Assembly (NCBI GenBank): GCA_014058105.1
Contig: JACGCM010002017.1
Span: 1,116,001 to 1,180,000 of the forward strand
From: Kingdonia uniflora
Lineage: Eukaryota > Streptophyta > Magnoliopsida > Ranunculales > Circaeasteraceae
Length of the DNA: 64,000 nt
Reading direction: 5' to 3'
Every line of letters begins with the position of its first letter. The stretch's first letter is position 1. The notes under the pieces are model-generated. The model had not been told where the DNA came from. It saw only the letters and a list, made by a program, of their open reading frames with translations, and made no database searches. The position numbers and the translations under genes are program-made. Below are positions 6-14,298 of this stretch, one piece after another.

Positions 6-3000
6 CAGGGGCGGAACTAGTAGTGGACTGACCCGGGCTATAGCCCGGGGTAAAATTTTGCCAAAAAAATAAATAGTTTTATTTGTTCGCACCTCTCTTC
101 CTCCACTCTACAGACTACAAACAAACTTTTCTTCCTGTAACTTTCTTCCTCTCTTCTCACACAAGACACAAGTCACACAACACAAGCCTTTCTTCTCTCA
201 TTCTCTGGTTTTCTTCTGTCTTTCCTCAATCCTCTCTCTCATAACACAAGCCCGCCTCTCTTCCTCTACAAACAAACCTCCGATTTGATGAATTTGACGA
301 ATTTCTTACCTTGTATCGCGCTTGGGAATCCAAGTTGTTTATAATTGACAAATTTGATTTCACCATACTAGGTATACTTTCTATCTCTCCAATTTTATGT
401 GATTATGTTTGGGTTGTTTTTGATTTCTAGGGTTCTTAATTAAGTTTTTTTTTATGGTAATTACGGGTTTTAGTGCGCTTGGTGCTTGAATAATTGGATA
501 CCTCTTTAGTGTGATTATCTGTGTTTTTGATGATTTTTTAGAATTGACCAATTTATCTTGGATAGGTGATCAAAAGTTTGTATAAACATTTTGCAATACT
601 CCATAAGTGAATTTTGTTTGTTATTTCCCAAGTTCCATATCATCATTCCCTTTGATCTCCCCGAGTTATTGAAAATATTATATAAAATTTTCGTTTATTT
701 AACACCCTCACTTATAATTCTACGAAATTCCCTATGCCCAACATATTGTTATCTCAGTTTCTCAAATTTCCTTTGATAAACTAACTTTCTCCTTAGATTT
801 TCCGTTAATTTCAGAGCATACTAATTGACCCAAGTTCCATTTTTTTGTGATTTTCCCTTGTATCTCTTGCATATATGCTCTGAAACATATGATCTTGCCG
901 AGAGTTTTTAAGATCGTTAGATGGGGTAACCATCTATAATTTATATTGTAAGAGTTATTTCGTCTTGATTTAGGATATACGTGATGATTCGACCATTGAT
1001 TAAAATTCCGGCTAGATATCATACATCAATATGATATTTTGGCATTGAAACCTGGGGGTATGATATATCGAAGCTATCTTGACGAGTATTTTTTTTATTT
1101 ATGTTTCAGCAGGATTCAGTACCAACCGCCAATATGATTGAAACCTTGTCACAAGACTCACCACAAATGAAATACTTTTTTCCCAGATAATAAAATTTAG
1201 TACAATAATATAATTTGAAGATTCCTAAAGAAAAATTACAATACATTTCATAGACATTCTAAGAAGCAGACTAGTTTGTCTTTTATCTTATTTTCATTAG
1301 ACTTCAGCAAACTCTTTAACAAGTAAAGAGCATGACAAAAGTTGAATTCAACCGCTATAAACCGTCATTAAATAAATATTTACTAACAAAACAGTTAAAA
1401 TACAACATTCTAGATATTTTGGGTACAAAATAAGTGCAGTAAAAACAGATGCAAAGTTTTGCAAGCTGTGCATCTCTCCTTGTAAACCAGAGAGCCAAAC
1501 CAGGAAAACGCAGTCCTGCAAAATAGAAATGAGCTAATTTAGCTTTTATTAAAGATGAGCTTAGAGAGATTTATTGGATAGCAGTACTTACAATAAACTG
1601 AATGATAGTATCGCTTAGTGTAGAAGAAAGTTATCATTATCGCCAGAAAAATGAAGAATGTCATAATCTGAAAGGGAATAAGGACTGTAAGAATGGTGCC
1701 ATATTCTTCATATAATATCACTAGATATATGAAATAAGATAGGGTTTACCAGAGTTGAATTGAATCTTGGTTTGATATCAAGTATGTAAGATCTTCTACA
1801 AAAATCATAATTTTTTTTATTGTCATTGTTGTGATGTAAACTCAAATCATGTTCCCTTAAACTTATTTAGTATACGCAAAGAAATTACGTAATTAATTAA
1901 TAATATTAGTAATTTTATAAGGATATTTACTAATATTATTAATTAATTACGTAATTTCTTTGCGTATACTAAATAAGTTTAAGGGAACACGATTTGAGTT
2001 TACATCACAACAATGACAATAAAAAAATTTATGATTTTTGTAGGAGATCTTACATATTTGATATCAAACCAAGATTCAATTCAACTCTGGTAAACCCTAT
2101 CCTATTTCATATATCTAGTGATATTATATGAAGAATATGGCACCATTCTTACAGTCCTTATTCCCTTTCAGATTATGACATTCTTCATTTTTTTGGCGAT
2201 AATGATAGCTTTCTTCTACACTAAGCGATACTATCATTCAGTTTATTGTAAGTACTGCTATCCAATAAATCTCTCTAAGCTCATCTTTAATAAAAGCTAA
2301 ATTAGCTCATTTCTATTTTGCAGGACTGCGTTTTCCTGGTTTGGCTCTCTGGTTTACAAGGAGAGATGCACAGCTTGCAAAACTTTGCATATGTTTTTAC
2401 TGCACTTATTTTGTACCCAAAATATCTAGAATGTTGTATTTTAACTGTTTTGTTAGTAAATATTTATTTAATGACGGTTTATAGCGGTTGAATTCAACTT
2501 CTGTTATGCTCTTTACTTGTTAAAGAGTTTGTTGAAGTCTAATGAAAATAAGATAAAAGACAAATTAGTCTGCTTCTTAGAATGTCTATGAAATGTATTG
2601 TAATTTTTCTTTATGAATCTTCAAATTATATTATTGTACTAAATTTTATTATCTGGGAAAGAAGTATTTCATTTGTGGTGAGTCTTGTGACAAGATTTCA
2701 ATCATACTGGCGATTGGTACTGAATCCTGCTGAAACATAAATAAAAAAATACTCGTCAAGATAGCTTTGATATATCATACCCCCAGGTTTCAATGCCAAA
2801 ATATCATATTGATGTATGATATCTAGCCGGAATTTTAATCACTGGTCGAATCATCACGTATATCATAAATCAAGACGAAATAACTCTTACAATATAAATT
2901 ATAGATGGTTACCTCATCTAGCGATCTTAAAAACTCTCGGCAAGATCATATATTTCAGAGCATATATGCAAGAGATACAAGGGAAAATTACAAAATTAAA

Positions 3001-3784
3001 AAGGGAACTTGGGTCAATTAGTATGCTCTGAAATTAACAGAAAATCTGAGGAGAAAGTTTGCTTATCAAAGGAAATTTGAGAAACTGAGATAACAATATG
3101 TTGGGCATGAGGGAATTTTGTAGAATTATATGTGAGGATGTTGAATAAACGAAAATTTTATATAATATTTTCAGTAACTCGGGGAGATCAAAGGGAATGA
3201 TGATATGGAACTTAGGAAATAACAAACAAAATTCACTATGGAGTATTGTAAAATGTTTCTACAAACTTTTGATCACCTATCCAAGATAAATTGGTCAATT
3301 CTAAAAAATCATCAAAAACACAGATAATCACACTAAAGAGGTATCCAATTATTCAAGCACCAAGCGCACTAAAACCCGTAATTACCATGAAAAAAAAACT
3401 TAATTAAGAACCCTAGAAATCAAAAACAACCCAAACATAATCACATAAAATTGGAGAGATAGAAAGTATACCTAGTATGGTGAAATCAAATTTGTCAATT
3501 ATAAACAACTTGGATTCCCAGGCGTGATACAAGGTGAGAAATTCATCAAATCAGAGGTTTGTTTGTAGAGGAAGAGAGGTGGGCTTGTGTTGTGAGAGAG
3601 AGGATTGAGGAAAGACAGAAGAAAATCAGAGAAGAAAGTCTTGTGTTGTGTGACTTGTGTCTTGTATGAGAGGAGAGAGGAAGAAAAGTTTGTTTGTAGT
3701 CTGTAGAGGTGGGAACAAATAAAACTAATATTTTTTTTTCGCAAAATTTTACCCCGGGTCAGTCCACTACTAGTTCCGCCCCTG
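6..3784. mobile_element. Giant foldback (inverted-repeat) element with hAT-like CAGGGGCGG ends
   Basis: Left arm 6-1912 and right arm 1927-3784 are reverse complements around a spacer of about 14 bp. Where compared they are nearly identical: a 183-bp stretch in each arm (1539-1721 and 2118-2300) shows about one difference. Length differs by about 49 bp because of small indels, for example extra bases after the terminal CCCGGG on the left. The outer ends read CAGGGGCGGAACTAGTAGTG and its complement, resembling plant hAT termini. The window starts only 5 bp before the left end, so the target-site duplication cannot be checked. Each outer arm begins with a CT-rich leader-like stretch followed by a possible splice donor (CTAG/GTATAC), as in a transposase 5' region, but no transposase reading frame is present. 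The right end abuts a LINE relic. Confidence 0.85.
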
Positions 3785-4375: not shown

Positions 4376-4641
4376 TTCGCAGGCAAAGCTGAAGTCCTAT
4401 AATTTCATTATTTTAATTCAATAAATTTAAATAGTCGTTTTCTTTTTTTAAATAACGCTCTTAGGGCATCAAAATGGCTACCAACTGAGATAATATGTTT
4501 CGAGAAAAACCAAGGAACGTCCTTGCAGATCAACTCACTTATCCAATCTCAAATTTCTAGACAATATTATCTCAAAGTTGTGAGTGTACTAAATAAAAAT
4601 GTTTACAAGGTAACTCCAGTAACAAAAAGCTATATCTAGAC

Positions 4642-4990
4642 TGTTGGAATATTATACAATCAACTATGATCAATAACTGAATCTGTAAAGTAGATTATAC
4701 TATCCTCTTCTTCTGCTCTCTGAAAATCAGCTGTTCTTGAGTGGAGTCTTTCCTTGGATTGGCTGCAGACCTCAATGAGATGGTTTTCTGTGTTGTAGCC
4801 TCCAAGATGGACTTACTCTCTATTTAACTTGATAGGGTTAGAGTAGTCTTTCCATTATACCTTCAAACCTTAATAAAGAGTAACACTAGGTCCCACCTAC
4901 CTTAACTTGGTGTGACAATTGGGCACAACCTATTAATATGTATGCTCGTGAACGATAAGAGTAGTGCCGATATAGATGAAAAATCCAACA
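4642..4990 (-). repeat. 3' LTR of copia element 1
   Basis: Terminal TG..CA repeat of 349 bp. It aligns with 9444-9809 apart from scattered substitutions and a 17-bp length difference. It is preceded by TAGAC and followed on the internal side by a polypurine tract. Confidence 0.92.
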
Positions 4991-5566
4991 ATCTCCCACC
5001 CGACGCTAACTCGATTTTAAGAAAAATATTTTTAACGTGATTCACGGTTTTTTATGAAAAGCAGATGGTCATTCTTTATTTTTAAAACCACACATGATAA
5101 TTTGTCGAAGGCAATGTTACATCAAACTTAACTGTCACTCTACGACTACAAAGATGGCTAACACGGTTCACGGACAAATTTTGGTCAGGCCTTTGAGCAC
5201 ATGCCTAATTCATATCGTAGACATCAGGCTAGCAACCTCAATAACTTTCAAGTATAATTTCTTTACTGGTAGAGTTTAGCGCGTGAATGGCAAATGTACA
5301 CCTTAATGATGTGTTAATACATTTTCATTAGTGTCCTGCAACATGTGTTTACCAGACACATGTCATTTCAATACTTAGACAAATGATCATGCGAAGATCA
5401 TCGCTCATACTGAAATGAAGGCCAAAAGATGCGGAGCCTACCCATATTCAACCCAAACAAACTTGAGAAACCTTTCAGTATTCTCTATAGCCACTTGATA
5501 CTTAGACAACCGTCATGTGATAAAATTACTCATATCTAAAACTTTATTGTAATTGCATAATTTAAA

Positions 5567-7535
5567 CTAAATATGTGCACATATAATAACGGATCCAAAT
5601 ATAATAACAGCTAAATAATCAAAAATCAATTCTGAATGTCGACCAAAATAATAACCGGGAATAACTCCCACATGGATAAAGAATCTTAGTGCAGTAATAG
5701 TACTTAAAACAAAACAAAAACTACTCTCACATAAAAGAGCGATCCTCAAAGAGACTCCAACAAAATCTGAGTCAGAGTAGCCCAAAACCATAAGCTCATC
5801 CGATCTCCTATAAACCAATATATAATCTCTTATCCTCTTTAAATGGCGAAAAACCTTCTTGGTTGCCTGCCAGTGAATAATAAAAGGGTTATGATGGTAC
5901 CTTCCTAACATCCCAATAACAAAACTAATGTCGGGTCGCATACATATCATGCCAAAGGCTTTCGTCTGCTGAAGAAATCGAACGTTACTGCTAGCGAGTA
6001 AAATATCATCGACGTACAAAACCATAAATATAGAATGTCTCCCACTCTGATTGACATAAATACAACGATCCATTTGCATTCAATTGCCTTAGATCCTTTA
6101 GGTAAATGTGTTAACTCCCACATAGAGTTGTGAGACATAAAATCAATCTCCTATGTTATGGCATTACGCCACTGATCTACAAAACAACTAGCCATAGCTG
6201 AACTAAAAGATACTGGATCCTCAAAATTAAATAATTCCCTTTCAACTGAATAAAGATGATAACCTAAAGAAATGGCTGAACAAGTCTTTCTAGGGGATCT
6301 TCGAGTAAGAGCTAGAGGCTGGGCTAGAGGTAGAATGACAGAAAGTAGAACATGAGCGGGTGGAGGAAAAATTTGAGGGAGAACTGGTGCTACGATGGGG
6401 TCTGGAACAAGGTCTGGAATCGTACTCGTCATAGTGCCAATATCAGATAAACACGAAAGCATAACAACACTGATCGGAATAGCAGTTGGACTTCGAGATA
6501 CAGAACCCTCCTCAAAGACAAACTCTCTATGAATAGTATTGGTAAAGTAATCTCCCTCCTCTATGAAATGGGAATGAACACAATTAACAATCTCCATGGG
6601 GCGAGATGGACAATAAAACCTGAAACCTATCGATCTCTCGGGGAAACCAACGAAGAAACAACTGACGGTCCTCAAAACTAACTTTCCAATATTCGGGTTA
6701 AACAATTTTGCCTCTACTGGACAACCCCAAACATGCAAGTGATTAAGACTATGATTTTTCCCAGTTCATAGATGATCAAGGAGTAGTGTACTGGGTTACA
6801 ATACCCTGATCCAGCAAATACTGATAGAATGGTCCCAAAAGTTGACCATCTTGATCGATCTTATCATAATACTCGCATCCTCGATCTGACCGGACAACCT
6901 TGATCTTTCGATCTAACTGTTTCTCAACCTCTAACGGAAAAGACTTAAATAAATGGTTAAGAGATAAACAATATAACCTATCAACTAGTAAACCGGAACC
7001 AATATGGAATCATGAAGAATAATGTCAAAACCACCATGTCTAAAATTGAAAAAATGAGTGTAACCGAGAAACTGAAACCAAATATCGTCTCATCGAAGGA
7101 ACATAAATGGTGCATGTTAGATCTAAAGTAACACCTTTCTAAAACCAAGCAAAAAATGCCAGCGAACTCAATAGGGAGGCGTCTAGCGCCTCTCAAGAAA
7201 ACCTGCTCCTCAGGCCTTGCCGACCGCCGACTGATGAACCCTTGTGAAGAATTTGAAATATGAACAGTTTCCCCATAATCTAACCACCAAGAGTTAGTGG
7301 GGACATCAACCAAATTGGATTCAAAATAAACATAAACGTGTGAGCGCACATTTCCACTGTCGTCACACTTCAGCGATAAAAGCTGAGATGAGTTACTGTA
7401 CTGCCTTCCCTTGACGAAACCCTCGAACTGTTCCTTAAAGAGATCTAACAGTTCCGGAGAGTAGTTAGAGTTCATCAAGGTCTCAATATTAGTCAGTTGG
7501 TTCTGAATCATAGGGTCCATAGCTGCATGAACCAA
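5567..7535 (-). pseudogene. Copia gag-pol remnant (protease, integrase, RT, RNase H)
   Basis: Reading from 7535 downwards, a protease segment has WWLDYGETVHISNSSQGF, a decayed D-S/T-G-A active site (the usual DSGA is now DYGE). Around 6840-6960 an integrase-core piece reads IKVVRSDRGCEYYDKID, carrying the second catalytic Asp. At 6500-6738 comes the post-integrase motif HVWGCPVEAKLFNPNIGK with FVGFPERSIGFRFYCP. At 5567-6079 RT and RNase H fragments include MVLYVDDILLAS, the YVDD catalytic box, and VLGYSDSDFVG. The N-terminal half of RT is largely missing, and frames change between the segments. All parts follow copia order (PR-IN-RT-RH). Non-functional. Confidence 0.88.
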
Positions 7536-8479
7536 AGACTTATTTTAGGACTTGCAAAAAATAAATTTTATGCACGTTTAACTTGATCTGTAAAAGATCT
7601 ATAACTTGATGTCTTTAATCTCGATCCTACCTCGGGTTAGGATAGTCGAGTCAAAGTGTATATAATATTTAAGGAATTGATTTTTCACTCTGCGGGTACA
7701 GCGATATATCATCGAATCCCTTATTTGGGTGCTGATTTGACATGCATTGCCCCCTATATGGTGATCACTCACGCTCAAGACTAGACTGACCACTTATAGT
7801 TTGACTCGAGACACTTCCTCACCTTTAGGCTGAGGGTTATCCTCATCTCCCCATACCGTATATCCTATCTTGACCCACTAATTAATTAGAAGTTTTTTAG
7901 CCTCTTTTGGGTGGTCTAATTGTTTCAAGTTTAATTAGTGCAAAATAGTCTTAATGAGACTTTACGAGAGAGTCTCAAAATTGCGGGAAACGTTCAAATT
8001 TATAGATAAAACTCTTTTGGGTGTATTTACCCACTTTGTATTCCGCATTCCTGACGACTACTTGATCTCGCTAAAACTCCATTGGAGATCCTTGATCATT
8101 AAAAGACCCTATATCATGAAGGATATATTTATATAGCTAATGTCATATACTAATTATTTATTGTGATCCCTGAACATGGCCGACATACATGGATATGCTA
8201 ATAGTAGAGTTTACGTGAATAACTAGTACTCATGAAAATGTCCAACTAGTCAACATATTAATGTTACAACTTCATATCAGATATATAAGTCGTAAGACAT
8301 AATTAATATCTACATTCCGCGACAATCGCAGAGTCCTAAAAAAACAAGAAACACAATAAAAGACACAGATATATAATGCAAAGTAGTCTCGCTGCTCGTG
8401 GAGTTGAACGTCGGCAGACCAACAATCAAACACAAAACCCCCAAAATACCTTGTTATTACTCCCACTCAGTGCGATAAA

Positions 8480-8930
8480 TAAACTTCCACCCTACGACAC
8501 AAAATTCTTATTAATAAATGCCACCATAACCTCTGAACACAAAACTCTGCTCGCAAAACAATGGTGCATCAGGATGATCAGGCAAACGCAAATACACAAA
8601 CAACAACTTAAACTCCTACCTCGACCTCTGTAGCGCATCCATAAACCCCTCCGTTATAAAATTTTGATGACTCCGTCCGAAATATTTCTTAAAACTTGTA
8701 ACAAAAGCCAATACCTCCACAGCCGCAACCAAAACTGATGGAGTTAATGTCGATGAGAAAACATTGCCAATCCGATTAGAACCATATCCAAGCAAAACCA
8801 GCGAATGCGAGAGAACCCCACCGGCGACCAAGAAACCCAAACCAATTGTACCTGAAATCAACCCCAAACTCCTAGAAATCACTGAAATCGGTAGAGTGAT
8901 TAGCTTCCAAGCCAAACTAGAACTCTTACT
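8480..8930 (-). pseudogene. Captured fragment of a PUX10-like UBX-domain gene inside copia element 1
   Basis: The minus-strand frame from about 8930 reads SLAWKLITLPISVISRSLGL, then a Gly-rich hydrophobic hairpin (SGTIGLGFLVAGGVLSHSL), then ITEGFMDALQRSR, a TAG stop, EFKLLFVYLRLPDHPDAPLF, and after a one-base shift FINKNFVS, stop, GGS. This matches the order of the hydrophobic segment and the start of the thioredoxin-like UAS domain in plant PUX10/FAF2-type UBX proteins, which recruit CDC48/p97 to lipid droplets. The UBA N-terminus and UBX C-terminus are absent. It lies between the retroelement's primer-binding site and its protease region, so it was probably copied from host mRNA or DNA. Two stops and a frameshift make it non-functional. 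The assignment rests on remembered family sequence, without a search. Confidence 0.72.
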
Positions 8931-9429
8931 GAGGCGACCGCCAACAAATCAGCATTGAATAGAGGGGTTTTCTACTCCAAATCAAGAAACCCTAGAATAA
9001 CAGATAGCTTAATTTTGGGAAGAACACCCATTAAGCCCTAGAATTACACAGATCTCTGATGTGGAAAATGAATCGAGTACACCTTGGATACAAAGCTCAA
9101 GAGAATAACTAGAATCTCCCCAAATCATAATTGATCTCTTTAGAGACAATTGCGACCAAAATCAGATTCGAAACCTAAAATTTCTCTTTGGTGAAATTGG
9201 AGGGAGGGAGAGAGAAGAAGAAGAAGAACCCTTAAATAAAGTTTGTTTGGGAATGATGGATAGGGAGAGAGAAAAAAAAAGACTCGGTTAACAGAACTGA
9301 AAACTTGTTGTACGCATGAGCAGTTAAAACAACTTAAAGTACTTAACCAAAACCATTAAACTACAGTAAAACAACTTGTGACAATAATCCGTTGTATCAA
9401 TAAATTAATCATAGAAAATTTGCATCCTA
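8931..9429 (-). other. Leader region of copia element 1
   Basis: About 500 bp between the primer-binding site and the UBX-like fragment, without a coding frame. On the minus strand it has a CT-rich run (around 9200-9230) and a sequence resembling a host 5' UTR. It may therefore be part of the captured transcript rather than retroelement leader. Confidence 0.45.
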
Positions 9430-9441
9430 GCTCTGATACCA
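9430..9441 (-). other. Primer-binding site (initiator tRNA-Met) of copia element 1
   Basis: The minus strand reads TGGTATCAGAGC, complementary to the 3' end of plant initiator tRNA-Met, 2 bp from the LTR end at 9444. This fixes the orientation of the element. Confidence 0.9.
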
Positions 9442-9443
9442 AT

Positions 9444-9809
9444 TGTTGGAATATTATACAATCAACTATGATCAATAACTGAATCTGTAAAGTAGATTAT
9501 ACTAACCCTTCTCCTACTATCTGAAAATCACATGTTCTTGAGTGGAGTCTTCCCTTGGATTGGCTGCAGACCTCAATGGGATGGTTTTCTGTGTTGTAGC
9601 CTCCAAGAGGAACTTCCTCTCTATTTTACTTGATAGGGTTAGAGTAGTCTTTCCATTATACCCTCAAACCCTAATAAAAAGTAACACTAGGTCCCACCTA
9701 CCTTAACTTGGTGTAACAATTGGGCACAACCAATTACATCTATACGACCTATTAACATGTGTGCTCGTGAACCAGAAAAGTAGTACCGGTATAGATGGAA
9801 AATCCAACA
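9444..9809 (-). repeat. 5' LTR of copia element 1
   Basis: 366-bp TG..CA repeat paired with 4642-4990 and followed by the TAGAC duplication at 9810-9814. Confidence 0.92.
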
Positions 9810-9814
9810 TAGAC

Positions 9815-10207
9815 AAGTCATATTAATAATATATAATTAATTAAATTTGATTATAAAAAAAAATCCATTTCCAATCTCAAATATGTATCAATGGCCATCA
9901 ATGCTAAGTTTATTTATGTCCATGTGTCGTCAGTTTTTCCTGGGTTAAATAAAATTAAAATCTGCTTAAAATCTCAACAAAAAAGTAAAAAAATTCTCAT
10001 TAATAAACAAAATTCTTATATTTTGTGTAAACCAGATTTTTTAATGGCAGACACAATACAAAGTGCGACGTAATCTTATTAGATTTCGACTCGACCACAA
10101 AATAGATCTCCCTTGAGCTCTACATAAAACCCAAATGTTTTTCAAGCATATTAATCTCACATACTCACTCTTGAGTTTTAGGTTTTGAGCTTCAGCAATG
10201 GCTGTTA
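9815..10207. other. AT-rich spacer, no recognised feature
   Basis: AT-rich sequence with no supported reading frame. The last about 100 bp before 10199 look like a short leader ending in an ATG at 10199, but the frame after it is not recognised and stops soon. Confidence 0.5.
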
Positions 10208-10595
10208 AGGAGATACCGGAGTTCATTACGGGGTCCAGTGGGTATCCCCAATCAGATCTTTGGCCGGTAGTACAGTTGCTAATAGTGGTTTTGTCACCGT
10301 CGATAACGAAGATTTTGATGCTAATTTTGGAAAGGTTCTCGATAGAGGACTCGTGAGAAGCTTTCATAGAGTCCAAGGAGAGCTTAAGATCGATGTTTCG
10401 ATCAAAAAAATAGTCGGTTTAACGTACCCAGAAAATTGAGTTACAGTTCTCGCAATAAAGAAGAGAGGCATCACGTTTAAGAGAGAAGAAGGAGCAATAC
10501 GTGACCCACACGTGGTTTCTTTAAGCCAAATCCAAGTTCAGCTACAGGTCACCCAAACCAGGCCCAAACCTAAGCCTGACATAGCCACGTCTTAA
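10208..10595. repeat. Unclassified 390-bp repeat, copy 1
   Basis: Direct repeat of 13461-13840, beginning GGAGATACCGGAGTTCATTA and ending in a Pro/Gln-codon-rich tail (CCCAAACC...). Three frames stay open over much of it in both copies, so it may derive from a protein-coding gene, but I recognise no domain. Copy 1 lies just upstream of the decayed LTR at 10811; copy 2 lies inside that element. Confidence 0.75.
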
Positions 10596-10810: not shown

Positions 10811-11189
10811 TGATGTGAATCGTCATCTAATAGTCGTTCTCACCGACGACGTATTATCTTTATTTATGTTATTTTGATTAAAGCCTCTCTATTGCTGGAG
10901 ATGCTAAGCAGATTTAGGGACTTGCTTGTTTAACCAACATAAGGTTAAAGATGAAAATTTTCCAATTTAAGCAGAATTTTATTTAGATTAGAATTAGGGT
11001 TGTTAATTCTTATCCTCCTTGTATTCTATAAAAGGGAAGACCTAGGTTATTTTCTTTTTAGTAGTTAGTAGAGTTGATTTGTTTATAAAAGAGTTAAGTT
11101 TTCCTCTGAATTAACTCTAGTAGAGATCTAGTTCAAACTTAGTGTTTACCAAATACGAATTAAGCTTCCACATTTATAGATTCACATTA
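10811..11189 (+). repeat. Left LTR of the decayed non-autonomous LTR element
   Basis: 379 bp, similar along its length to the LTRs at 34598-34974 and 36209-36565, with the same promoter-like CTATAAAAGGGAAG (11027-11040) and the same terminal inverted repeat TGATGTG..CACATTA. Confidence 0.82.
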
Positions 11190-11656
11190 TTTGGCATCAA
11201 TGTTGTGTTCACATCCCCAGTGTAGTAAGTTTCAAGAGCAAGATGCCTTGTGAAATACCCACGACGAAGTAACCTACACTCGCTCTAGATGTAGCAAAAT
11301 TAACGGAAAGACTCGATCGGCTTGTTGAGGCTTTGGGTACGGGAGCCTTTATCCTCCCCCCCCCCTCCCCAATCAACGGCGATTTTACCTCCTATTTACG
11401 ATGACTACCTTAAAGATTGGAGCAACACCGCAAAGATTGGTGAAACGGAAACCCCGCTTATACGTCTTCCCATCGATAGCGACGCGAGATTGAAAACCTT
11501 GATGTTTGATACGGCGAGCAAAGATACGCCGACCATCTTGGAAGGTCCGGTCAATGACCTACCATCACCGACAGTAAGTTCACATTTGAAGACAGCGTCA
11601 TACGGCATCCATTTTTTTTGAAGCCGCGATAAAAAATACCGTCATAATTTGTGATA

Positions 11657-13460: not shown

Positions 13461-13840
13461 GTGATAAAGGAGATACCGGAGTTCATTACGGGGTCCAGTG
13501 GGTATCCCCAATCAGAGTTTTGGCTGGTAGTACAGTTGTTAATAATGGTTTTATTGCCGACGATAACAAAGATTTTGATGCTGATTTTGGAAAGGTTCTC
13601 GATAGAGGAGTCATGGGAAGCTTTCTTAGAGTCCAAGGGGAGCTTAAGATCAATGTTTCTATAAAAAAAATAGCCGGTTCAACATACCCAGAAAATCGAG
13701 TTAGAGTTCTCGCGATGAAGAAGAGAGACTTCACGTTTGACAGAGAATAAGGGGTAACACATGACTCACACGTGGCTTCTTTAAGCCAAATCCAGGCCTA
13801 GCTACAGGTCGCCCAAACCCAAGCCTAACATAGCCACGTC
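13461..13840. repeat. Unclassified 390-bp repeat, copy 2
   Basis: Second copy of 10208-10595. A plus frame runs 13451-13750 (99 codons, including DFDADFGKVLDRGVMGSF). The equivalent frame in copy 1 carries a stop and many amino-acid changes, so neither copy looks to be under selection. Confidence 0.72.
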
Positions 13841-14123: not shown

Positions 14124-14298
14124 CCATTATTGGAGATGCTAAGTAGATTTTAGGAACTTGCTTGTTTAACTAACACAATGTTAAAGATGAAGTTTTTCTA
14201 ATTTAAGTAGAATTTTATTTAGATTAGAATTATGGTTGCTAATTCTAATCCCCCTTGCATTCTATAAAAGAGAAGGCCTAGGTTATTTGCTTTTCCAC
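14124..14298 (+). repeat. Truncated right LTR of the decayed LTR element
   Basis: Matches the middle of the family LTR (from TTGGAGATGCTAAGT to CCTAGGTTATTTG). The first about 90 bp and the last about 130 bp are missing. The upstream join, at ATCCCATTATTGGAG, fits a deletion at a short ATT homology between gag and LTR. Confidence 0.72.

What the first reader, a model, noticed from the sequence alone, without database searches (positions are those of the whole stretch)
8380..9440. Host UBX-domain (PUX10-like) gene fragment captured between primer-binding site and protease of a copia element
The minus strand carries the hydrophobic segment and start of the UAS domain of a PUX10-type protein (AWKLITLPISVISRSLGL; GFMDALQRSR; KLLFVYL). 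It lies inside clear LTR boundaries with a 5-bp duplication, and with upstream sequence that resembles a host 5' UTR. Transduction of host genes by copia elements is documented in plants but uncommon, and PUX10 proteins have a known job (CDC48 recruitment to lipid droplets).
Basis: partly seen in the sequence, partly recalled or inferred. Interest (0 to 1): 0.75.

Follow-up and report, generated by a model that had tools for sequence, protein, structure and literature searches.

The report
Host gene piece in jumping element
A copia-type retrotransposon in the plant Kingdonia uniflora carries a decayed piece of the plant's own PUX10 gene, apparently picked up once and found at five places; this kind of gene theft is well known in plants, though here a Helitron separately copied part of the same gene.

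Summary
Window 4642-9809 (minus strand) is a degenerate Ty1/copia element (LTRs 4642-4990 and 9444-9809, TSD TAGAC, PBS 9430-9441). At about 8494-8935 it carries, in sense, part of exon 1 of host PUX10 (89.6% identical). The genome is Kingdonia uniflora; the donor is GIB67_000900. Five loci with the fragment were found (31 of 31 candidates scored). All five share 11 substitutions, a 3-bp deletion and a frameshifting base against the host: one capture, then spread. The host piece replaced about 122 bp of leader upstream of gag; host and insert-free element share 9 nt at the 3' junction. The carrier lineage has gag deletions, so it was probably mobilised in trans. Template switching fits best but is not proven: the piece lies within one exon. 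The supposed host 5'UTR is element leader. Changes are spread evenly over codon positions: a decaying passenger. Ordinary in kind. Beside it, a 9.7-kb Helitron family independently took the overlapping 5' part of the same gene (24 short matches; 23 of 23 fetched confirmed).

The parts
4637..4641 (.). target site duplication TAGAC (left)
4642..4990 (-). 3' LTR (TG...CA), 349 bp
   Evidence: K2P 0.073 to the 5' LTR over 348 sites
5570..6079 (-). reverse transcriptase remnant (RVT_2 E 7.4e-4, 19.6 bits, below the Pfam cut-off of 31.6)
6154..6765 (-). integrase C-terminal SH3-like domain (PF25597, E 6.7e-12)
6981..7544 (-). gag remnant (start about 7520) with internal deletions, running into a protease remnant (SWWLDYGETVHIS)
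   Evidence: no Pfam match, so the naming rests on a recalled motif and on alignment with L015 and L016
7545..8493 (-). element leader, gag-proximal part, shared by insert-free copies
8494..8935 (-). captured fragment of host PUX10 exon 1 (host L004 1458-2005 in fuller copies; the window copy has lost the 3' end); residues about 64-246 of 462: hydrophobic segment and start of the UAS domain; sense to the element
9430..9441 (-). primer-binding site TGGTATCAGAGC (initiator tRNA-Met type; that naming is recalled)
9444..9809 (-). 5' LTR, 366 bp
9810..9814 (.). target site duplication TAGAC (right)

Best explanation
A copia lineage of Kingdonia uniflora with a deleted gag picked up about 548 bp of host PUX10 exon 1 once. 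The likely route is that reverse transcriptase, copying element RNA inside the particle, jumped to a co-packaged PUX10 mRNA at a shared ATTTTGTGC, copied the mRNA, and jumped back to the element leader, so that host sequence replaced about 122 bp of leader. The resulting copy was then spread, probably with proteins supplied in trans, to at least five loci. The fragment sits in the leader, is frameshifted in all five copies and decays as a passenger. Shown: common origin of the five fragments, sense orientation, replacement rather than insertion, gag deletions, no sign of coding constraint. Inferred: RNA as the template, supply in trans, gag deletion before the capture.
For: The host end point on the 5' side is the same in five of five copies, with the same element flank in four (window, L011, L012, L014); on the 3' side host end and element flank are the same in the four copies that keep it. 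11 substitutions, a 3-bp deletion and a 1-bp insertion are shared by all five against the host. Host and insert-free element share 9 nt at the 3' junction; random junctions reach 9 or more in 0.014% of 200,000 draws. Insert-free L015 and L016 have 122 and 123 bp of own leader at the place. The fragment is sense to the element and wholly exonic. Gag deletions are shared by L011, L012 and L014, the protease-side one also by the window, and judged by BLAST continuity by insert-free L058. Differences from host at codon positions 1/2/3 are 92/84/103 pooled, p = 0.38.
Against: The 5' junction shows no clear microhomology. The element flank on the 5' side differs in L013. No intron is spanned, so an mRNA template is not shown; DNA repair with filler DNA would leave the same marks. 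In a tree of the leader flank of six copies the window groups with insert-free L015 and L016 (99/97), so the copies are mosaics or the history is not a simple tree. No helper copy was sought; the gag frames of L015 and L016 hold stops too. Pooled codon counts count shared changes more than once, and the control (host against the C1862 paralog, 17/16/29) is weak because that paralog is itself decayed.
Confidence: 0.75

Rival explanations
1. DNA-level capture: a break in an integrated element copy was repaired with filler DNA from the PUX10 locus by microhomology-mediated joining, and that copy then amplified.
For: 9-nt match at one junction, loss of element sequence between the junctions, no intron in the fragment to tell mRNA from DNA.
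Against: Needs a chance sense orientation and a chance all-exon segment (exon 1 is about 0.8 kb, intron 1 about 5.8 kb). Transduced genes in plant LTR elements are said to lie usually in the sense of gag-pol (PMC7264820, passage; the passage does not name the route).
Confidence: 0.2
2. A separate later insertion (for example a retroposed PUX10 copy or a DNA transposon) that landed in this one element.
For: The window copy alone could not exclude it.
Against: Four other loci carry the fragment with shared end points, and element sequence was replaced, not split.
Confidence: 0.02
3. The fragment is kept for a function, for example as a source of small RNAs matching PUX10.
For: 84-91% identity to the host gene persists; [quoted passage not shown]
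Against: Frameshift in all five copies and even codon-position changes. C-to-T and G-to-A make up 167 of 279 differences from the host, as in methylated silent repeats (recalled pattern). No expression or small-RNA data were at hand.
Confidence: 0.03

Closest known systems
Bs1 of maize (LTR element with pieces of three host genes)
   Same: LTR element carrying host gene fragments in its internal region
   Different: Bs1's pieces form a chimeric gene reported as transcribed and translated (PMC13317346 section 4); here one piece lies in the leader and is frameshifted
LTR-captured genes of rice and sorghum (Jiang and Ramachandran 2013, PMC3726574, passages)
   Same: Host genes carried by LTR elements, many in rice evolving without constraint
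   Different: That is a genome-wide annotation set; here one event is traced to donor, junctions and copies
Template-switch chimeras: Veju TRIM long form and BARE-2 (PMC13317346 section 4)
   Same: Foreign sequence brought into an LTR element and propagated with it
   Different: There the partner is unknown DNA or another retrotransposon; here it is an identified host gene

Membership tests
Ty1/copia LTR retrotransposon | Two LTRs with TG...CA ends | tested here: met
   4642-4990 and 9444-9809
Ty1/copia LTR retrotransposon | 5-bp target site duplication | tested here: met
   TAGAC on both sides
Ty1/copia LTR retrotransposon | tRNA primer-binding site next to the 5' LTR | tested here: met
   TGGTATCAGAGC at 9441-9430; match to initiator tRNA-Met recalled, not tested
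Ty1/copia LTR retrotransposon | Integrase before reverse transcriptase, RVT_2-type RT | tested here: met
   SH3 domain 6765-6154 precedes RT 6079-5570 in sense order; RVT_2 itself scores below the Pfam cut-off (19.6 of 31.6 bits)
Host gene transduction by an LTR element | Donor gene present elsewhere in the genome and intact | tested here: met
   C722, GIB67_000900, 462 aa with UBA, UAS (FAF1) and UBX domains listed
Host gene transduction by an LTR element | Fragment inside the element and propagated with it | tested here: met
   five loci found
Host gene transduction by an LTR element | mRNA origin (introns missing) | tested here: inconclusive
   fragment lies inside exon 1
Helitron (second family, seen in passing) | 5' TC, 3' CTRR, insertion between A and T, often a 3' palindrome | tested here: met
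   C264 copy: A before TC, CTAG end, T after it, no strong hairpin; C11 copy: G before TC, GTAG end, T after it, clear hairpin (two copies seen in full). Criteria from a PMC2575219 passage
Helitron (second family, seen in passing) | Rep/helicase in the element or in an autonomous relative | not tested
   not searched for

The most novel reading that the evidence does not exclude
PUX10 in Kingdonia is a favoured donor: overlapping parts of one gene were taken separately by a retrotransposon (in sense) and by a Helitron (antisense to the Helitron), leaving about 29 partial copies whose small RNAs could act back on the single intact gene found.
Probability: 0.06. Interest if true: 0.55.

Novelty: new member of a known kind. 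Interest (0 to 1): 0.28.

Why it matters
It is a well-resolved capture with donor, both junctions, insert-free relatives and a defective carrier background in hand, which makes it a usable test case for how LTR elements take up host sequence. That one gene was taken by a class I and a class II element invites a test of whether donor choice is random. No functional consequence is shown.

Tried and rejected
Host 5'UTR reading of 8936-9440: rejected, insert-free copies carry it. Later private insertion: rejected, shared end points. The paralog at C1862 as donor: rejected, 73% identity to the window insert over 206 bp against about 90% for C722, and it has stops. Coding function: rejected by the shared frameshift and even codon positions. 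A roughly 300-bp leader segment beside the insert in L012 and L014 (first 95 bp also in L013) was not identified: genome searches for it did not complete (in one form; in another). A count of the Helitron family with the 330-bp piece did not complete, nor a search with 9030-9443 (not repeated), nor the UBX family search. L057 was fetched as a further insert-free copy, but it is truncated and rearranged upstream of the leader and was left out of the counts. My notes say 13 shared substitutions and up to 150 bp of replaced leader; searches show 11 in all five copies (one more in four of five) and 122-123 bp, and the report uses those.

No paper of the held open-licence library has both PUX10 and retrotransposon (0 papers); subscription papers were not searched.

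Full report
What is there. The window lies at C678:1116001-1180000 of a 1.0-Gb plant genome. The exon 1 protein of the donor locus on C722 is 100% identical, over 98% of 267 residues, to GIB67_000900 of Kingdonia uniflora, whose contig length in that listing, 1,829,850, equals that of C722. The element on the minus strand has LTRs at 4642-4990 and 9444-9809, TSD TAGAC and a PBS at 9430-9441. Pfam finds an integrase SH3 domain (E 6.7e-12) and a weak RVT_2 match below cut-off among the six pol-to-leader pieces given; gag and protease remnants are read from motif and alignment. The window's LTRs differ by K2P 0.073 over 348 sites; those of copy L011 by about 0.11 over 343 sites, a value slightly raised because its ends were not trimmed exactly. 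At a rate often used for plants (1.3e-8 per site per year, recalled and not calibrated here) that is roughly 3 and 4 million years.

The fragment. Window 8494-8935, minus strand, matches host PUX10 exon 1 at 89.6% over 440 sites. In the fuller copies the captured stretch is host L004 1458-2005, about residues 64-246 of 462: the hydrophobic segment and the start of the UAS domain. Exon 1 (ATG at L004 1269, end at 2051) has UBA and FAF1/UAS matches, and the full protein also lists UBX. The window copy has lost the fragment's 3' end and some flanking leader by a private deletion at about 8493/8494.

Copies. A genome search with L004 1450-2075 (the captured segment with short flanks) scored 31 of 31 candidates: the donor, five element loci (C678 the window, C2431, C7, C1524, C883), a 78% paralog on C1862, and 24 short matches discussed below. 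The tool warns that such counts can be low, so five is what was found. The leader probe (7700-8493) gave 900 first-look candidates, of which the best 40 were scored and matched; insert-bearing copies therefore look like a small minority. All five inserts share 11 substitutions, a 3-bp deletion and a 1-bp insertion against the host; one more substitution and a short deletion are in four of five. One of the 11 (host M, inserts R) looks like a change on the host side, since Lotus and Camellia PUX10 also have R there (two proteins looked at). So the five descend from one capture, and the frame was already broken in the copy that spread.

Junctions. On the 5' side the host end point is the same in five of five copies; the element flank is the same in four and differs in L013. 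On the 3' side host end and flank agree in the four copies that keep it. Insert-free L015 and L016 carry 122 and 123 bp of own leader where the host piece lies in the others. Host and insert-free element share ATTTTGTGC at the 3' junction; random junctions reach 9 nt or more in 0.014% of 200,000 draws. The 5' junction has no clear match.

Order of events. Copies L011, L012 and L014 share gag deletions against L015 and L016; the window shares the protease-side one and has a larger one of its own. L058 aligns with L012 straight through these deletions and has no PUX10 match (BLAST), so the lineage was probably defective before the capture, although loss of the insert by recombination is possible. 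L013 could not be tested for gag because its similarity stops in the leader. A tree of the leader flank from six copies puts the window with insert-free L015 and L016 at 99/97, and none of the four other insert copies aligns over the whole of 9042-9441 as those two do: the copies look like mosaics, as expected if RNAs recombine during reverse transcription. That tree does not support a simple insert-bearing clade.

Selection. Differences from the host at codon positions 1/2/3 are 16/14/16 in the window and 92/84/103 pooled over five copies (chi-square p = 0.38). C-to-T and G-to-A make up 167 of 279 differences. This looks like a decaying passenger. The control is weak: the C1862 paralog (17/16/29) is itself a pseudogene.

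Mechanism. Sense orientation, all-exon content, replacement of leader, and microhomology at the junction that a reverse transcriptase moving towards the RNA's 5' end reaches first all fit template switching onto PUX10 mRNA. A DNA repair event is not excluded, because no intron is spanned. Supply of gag in trans is inferred from the deletions; the gag frames of L015 and L016 also hold stops, and no helper was sought.

What is known. Capture of host genes by plant LTR elements is documented in numbers: 672 in rice, 1,343 in sorghum, 424 in maize (PMC3726574, passages), with Bs1 as an early case and template switching described as a route (PMC13317346 section 4). Transduced genes are said to be usually in sense (PMC7264820, passages). 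No held paper has both PUX10 and retrotransposon.

A second capture. The 24 short matches reach only host L004 1450-1517, the left limit being the probe's own start. 23 of the 24 were fetched; 23 of 23 contain a longer piece of the gene, starting between 1189 and 1343 and ending between 1491 and 1517, in the longest 5'UTR plus the first 249 nt of coding sequence. They show no BLAST match to the copia element. Two copies, read together with neighbouring stretches, run 9,761 and 9,677 bp from TCTATACTACTAAAGG to a CTAG or GTAG end followed by T; the C264 copy has A before TC, the C11 copy has G there and a clear 3' hairpin. A precedes the TC end in 5 of 7 copies viewed. These are Helitron features (criteria: PMC2575219 passage). 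The PUX10 piece is antisense to the Helitron. A rhamnogalacturonan-lyase-like frame also lies in it (recognised from memory, not searched).

Verdict. In kind it is ordinary; the double use of one donor gene is the point most likely to catch a specialist's eye.

Noticed in passing
L024-L046, L047-L053; full copies in L051+L055+L059 and L052+L056+L060: A 9.7-kb Helitron family independently carries host PUX10 5'UTR and start of coding sequence (host L004 1189-1517 at most), antisense to the Helitron: 24 short matches, 23 fetched, 23 of 23 with the longer piece.
   Followed up: partly
L012 about 4630-4930, L014 about 4920-5240, first 95 bp in L013: A roughly 300-bp leader segment of unknown origin lies beside the PUX10 insert in two copies and partly in a third; apart from short ends it does not match L015, L058 or the window.
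   Followed up: partly
window 6-3784: A 3.7-kb inverted repeat (central arms 1090-1912 and 1927-2749, 98% complementary, 14 nt between; outer parts mostly 90-100%, one 77%): a very long palindrome or foldback element.
   Followed up: no
window 10207-10506 and 13467-13766; 10913-11058 and 14149-14294: Two pairs of direct repeats (88-89% identical, spacing about 3.25 kb) just beyond the copia element, enclosing an unknown stretch; a 47-nt inverted pair at 11654 and 13398 lies within.
   Followed up: no
L023, C1862:2743424-2743783: A second PUX10-like locus, 78% identical, with stops and no match to the first half of exon 1; similarity of its flank to the donor locus suggests an old duplicated segment.
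   Followed up: partly
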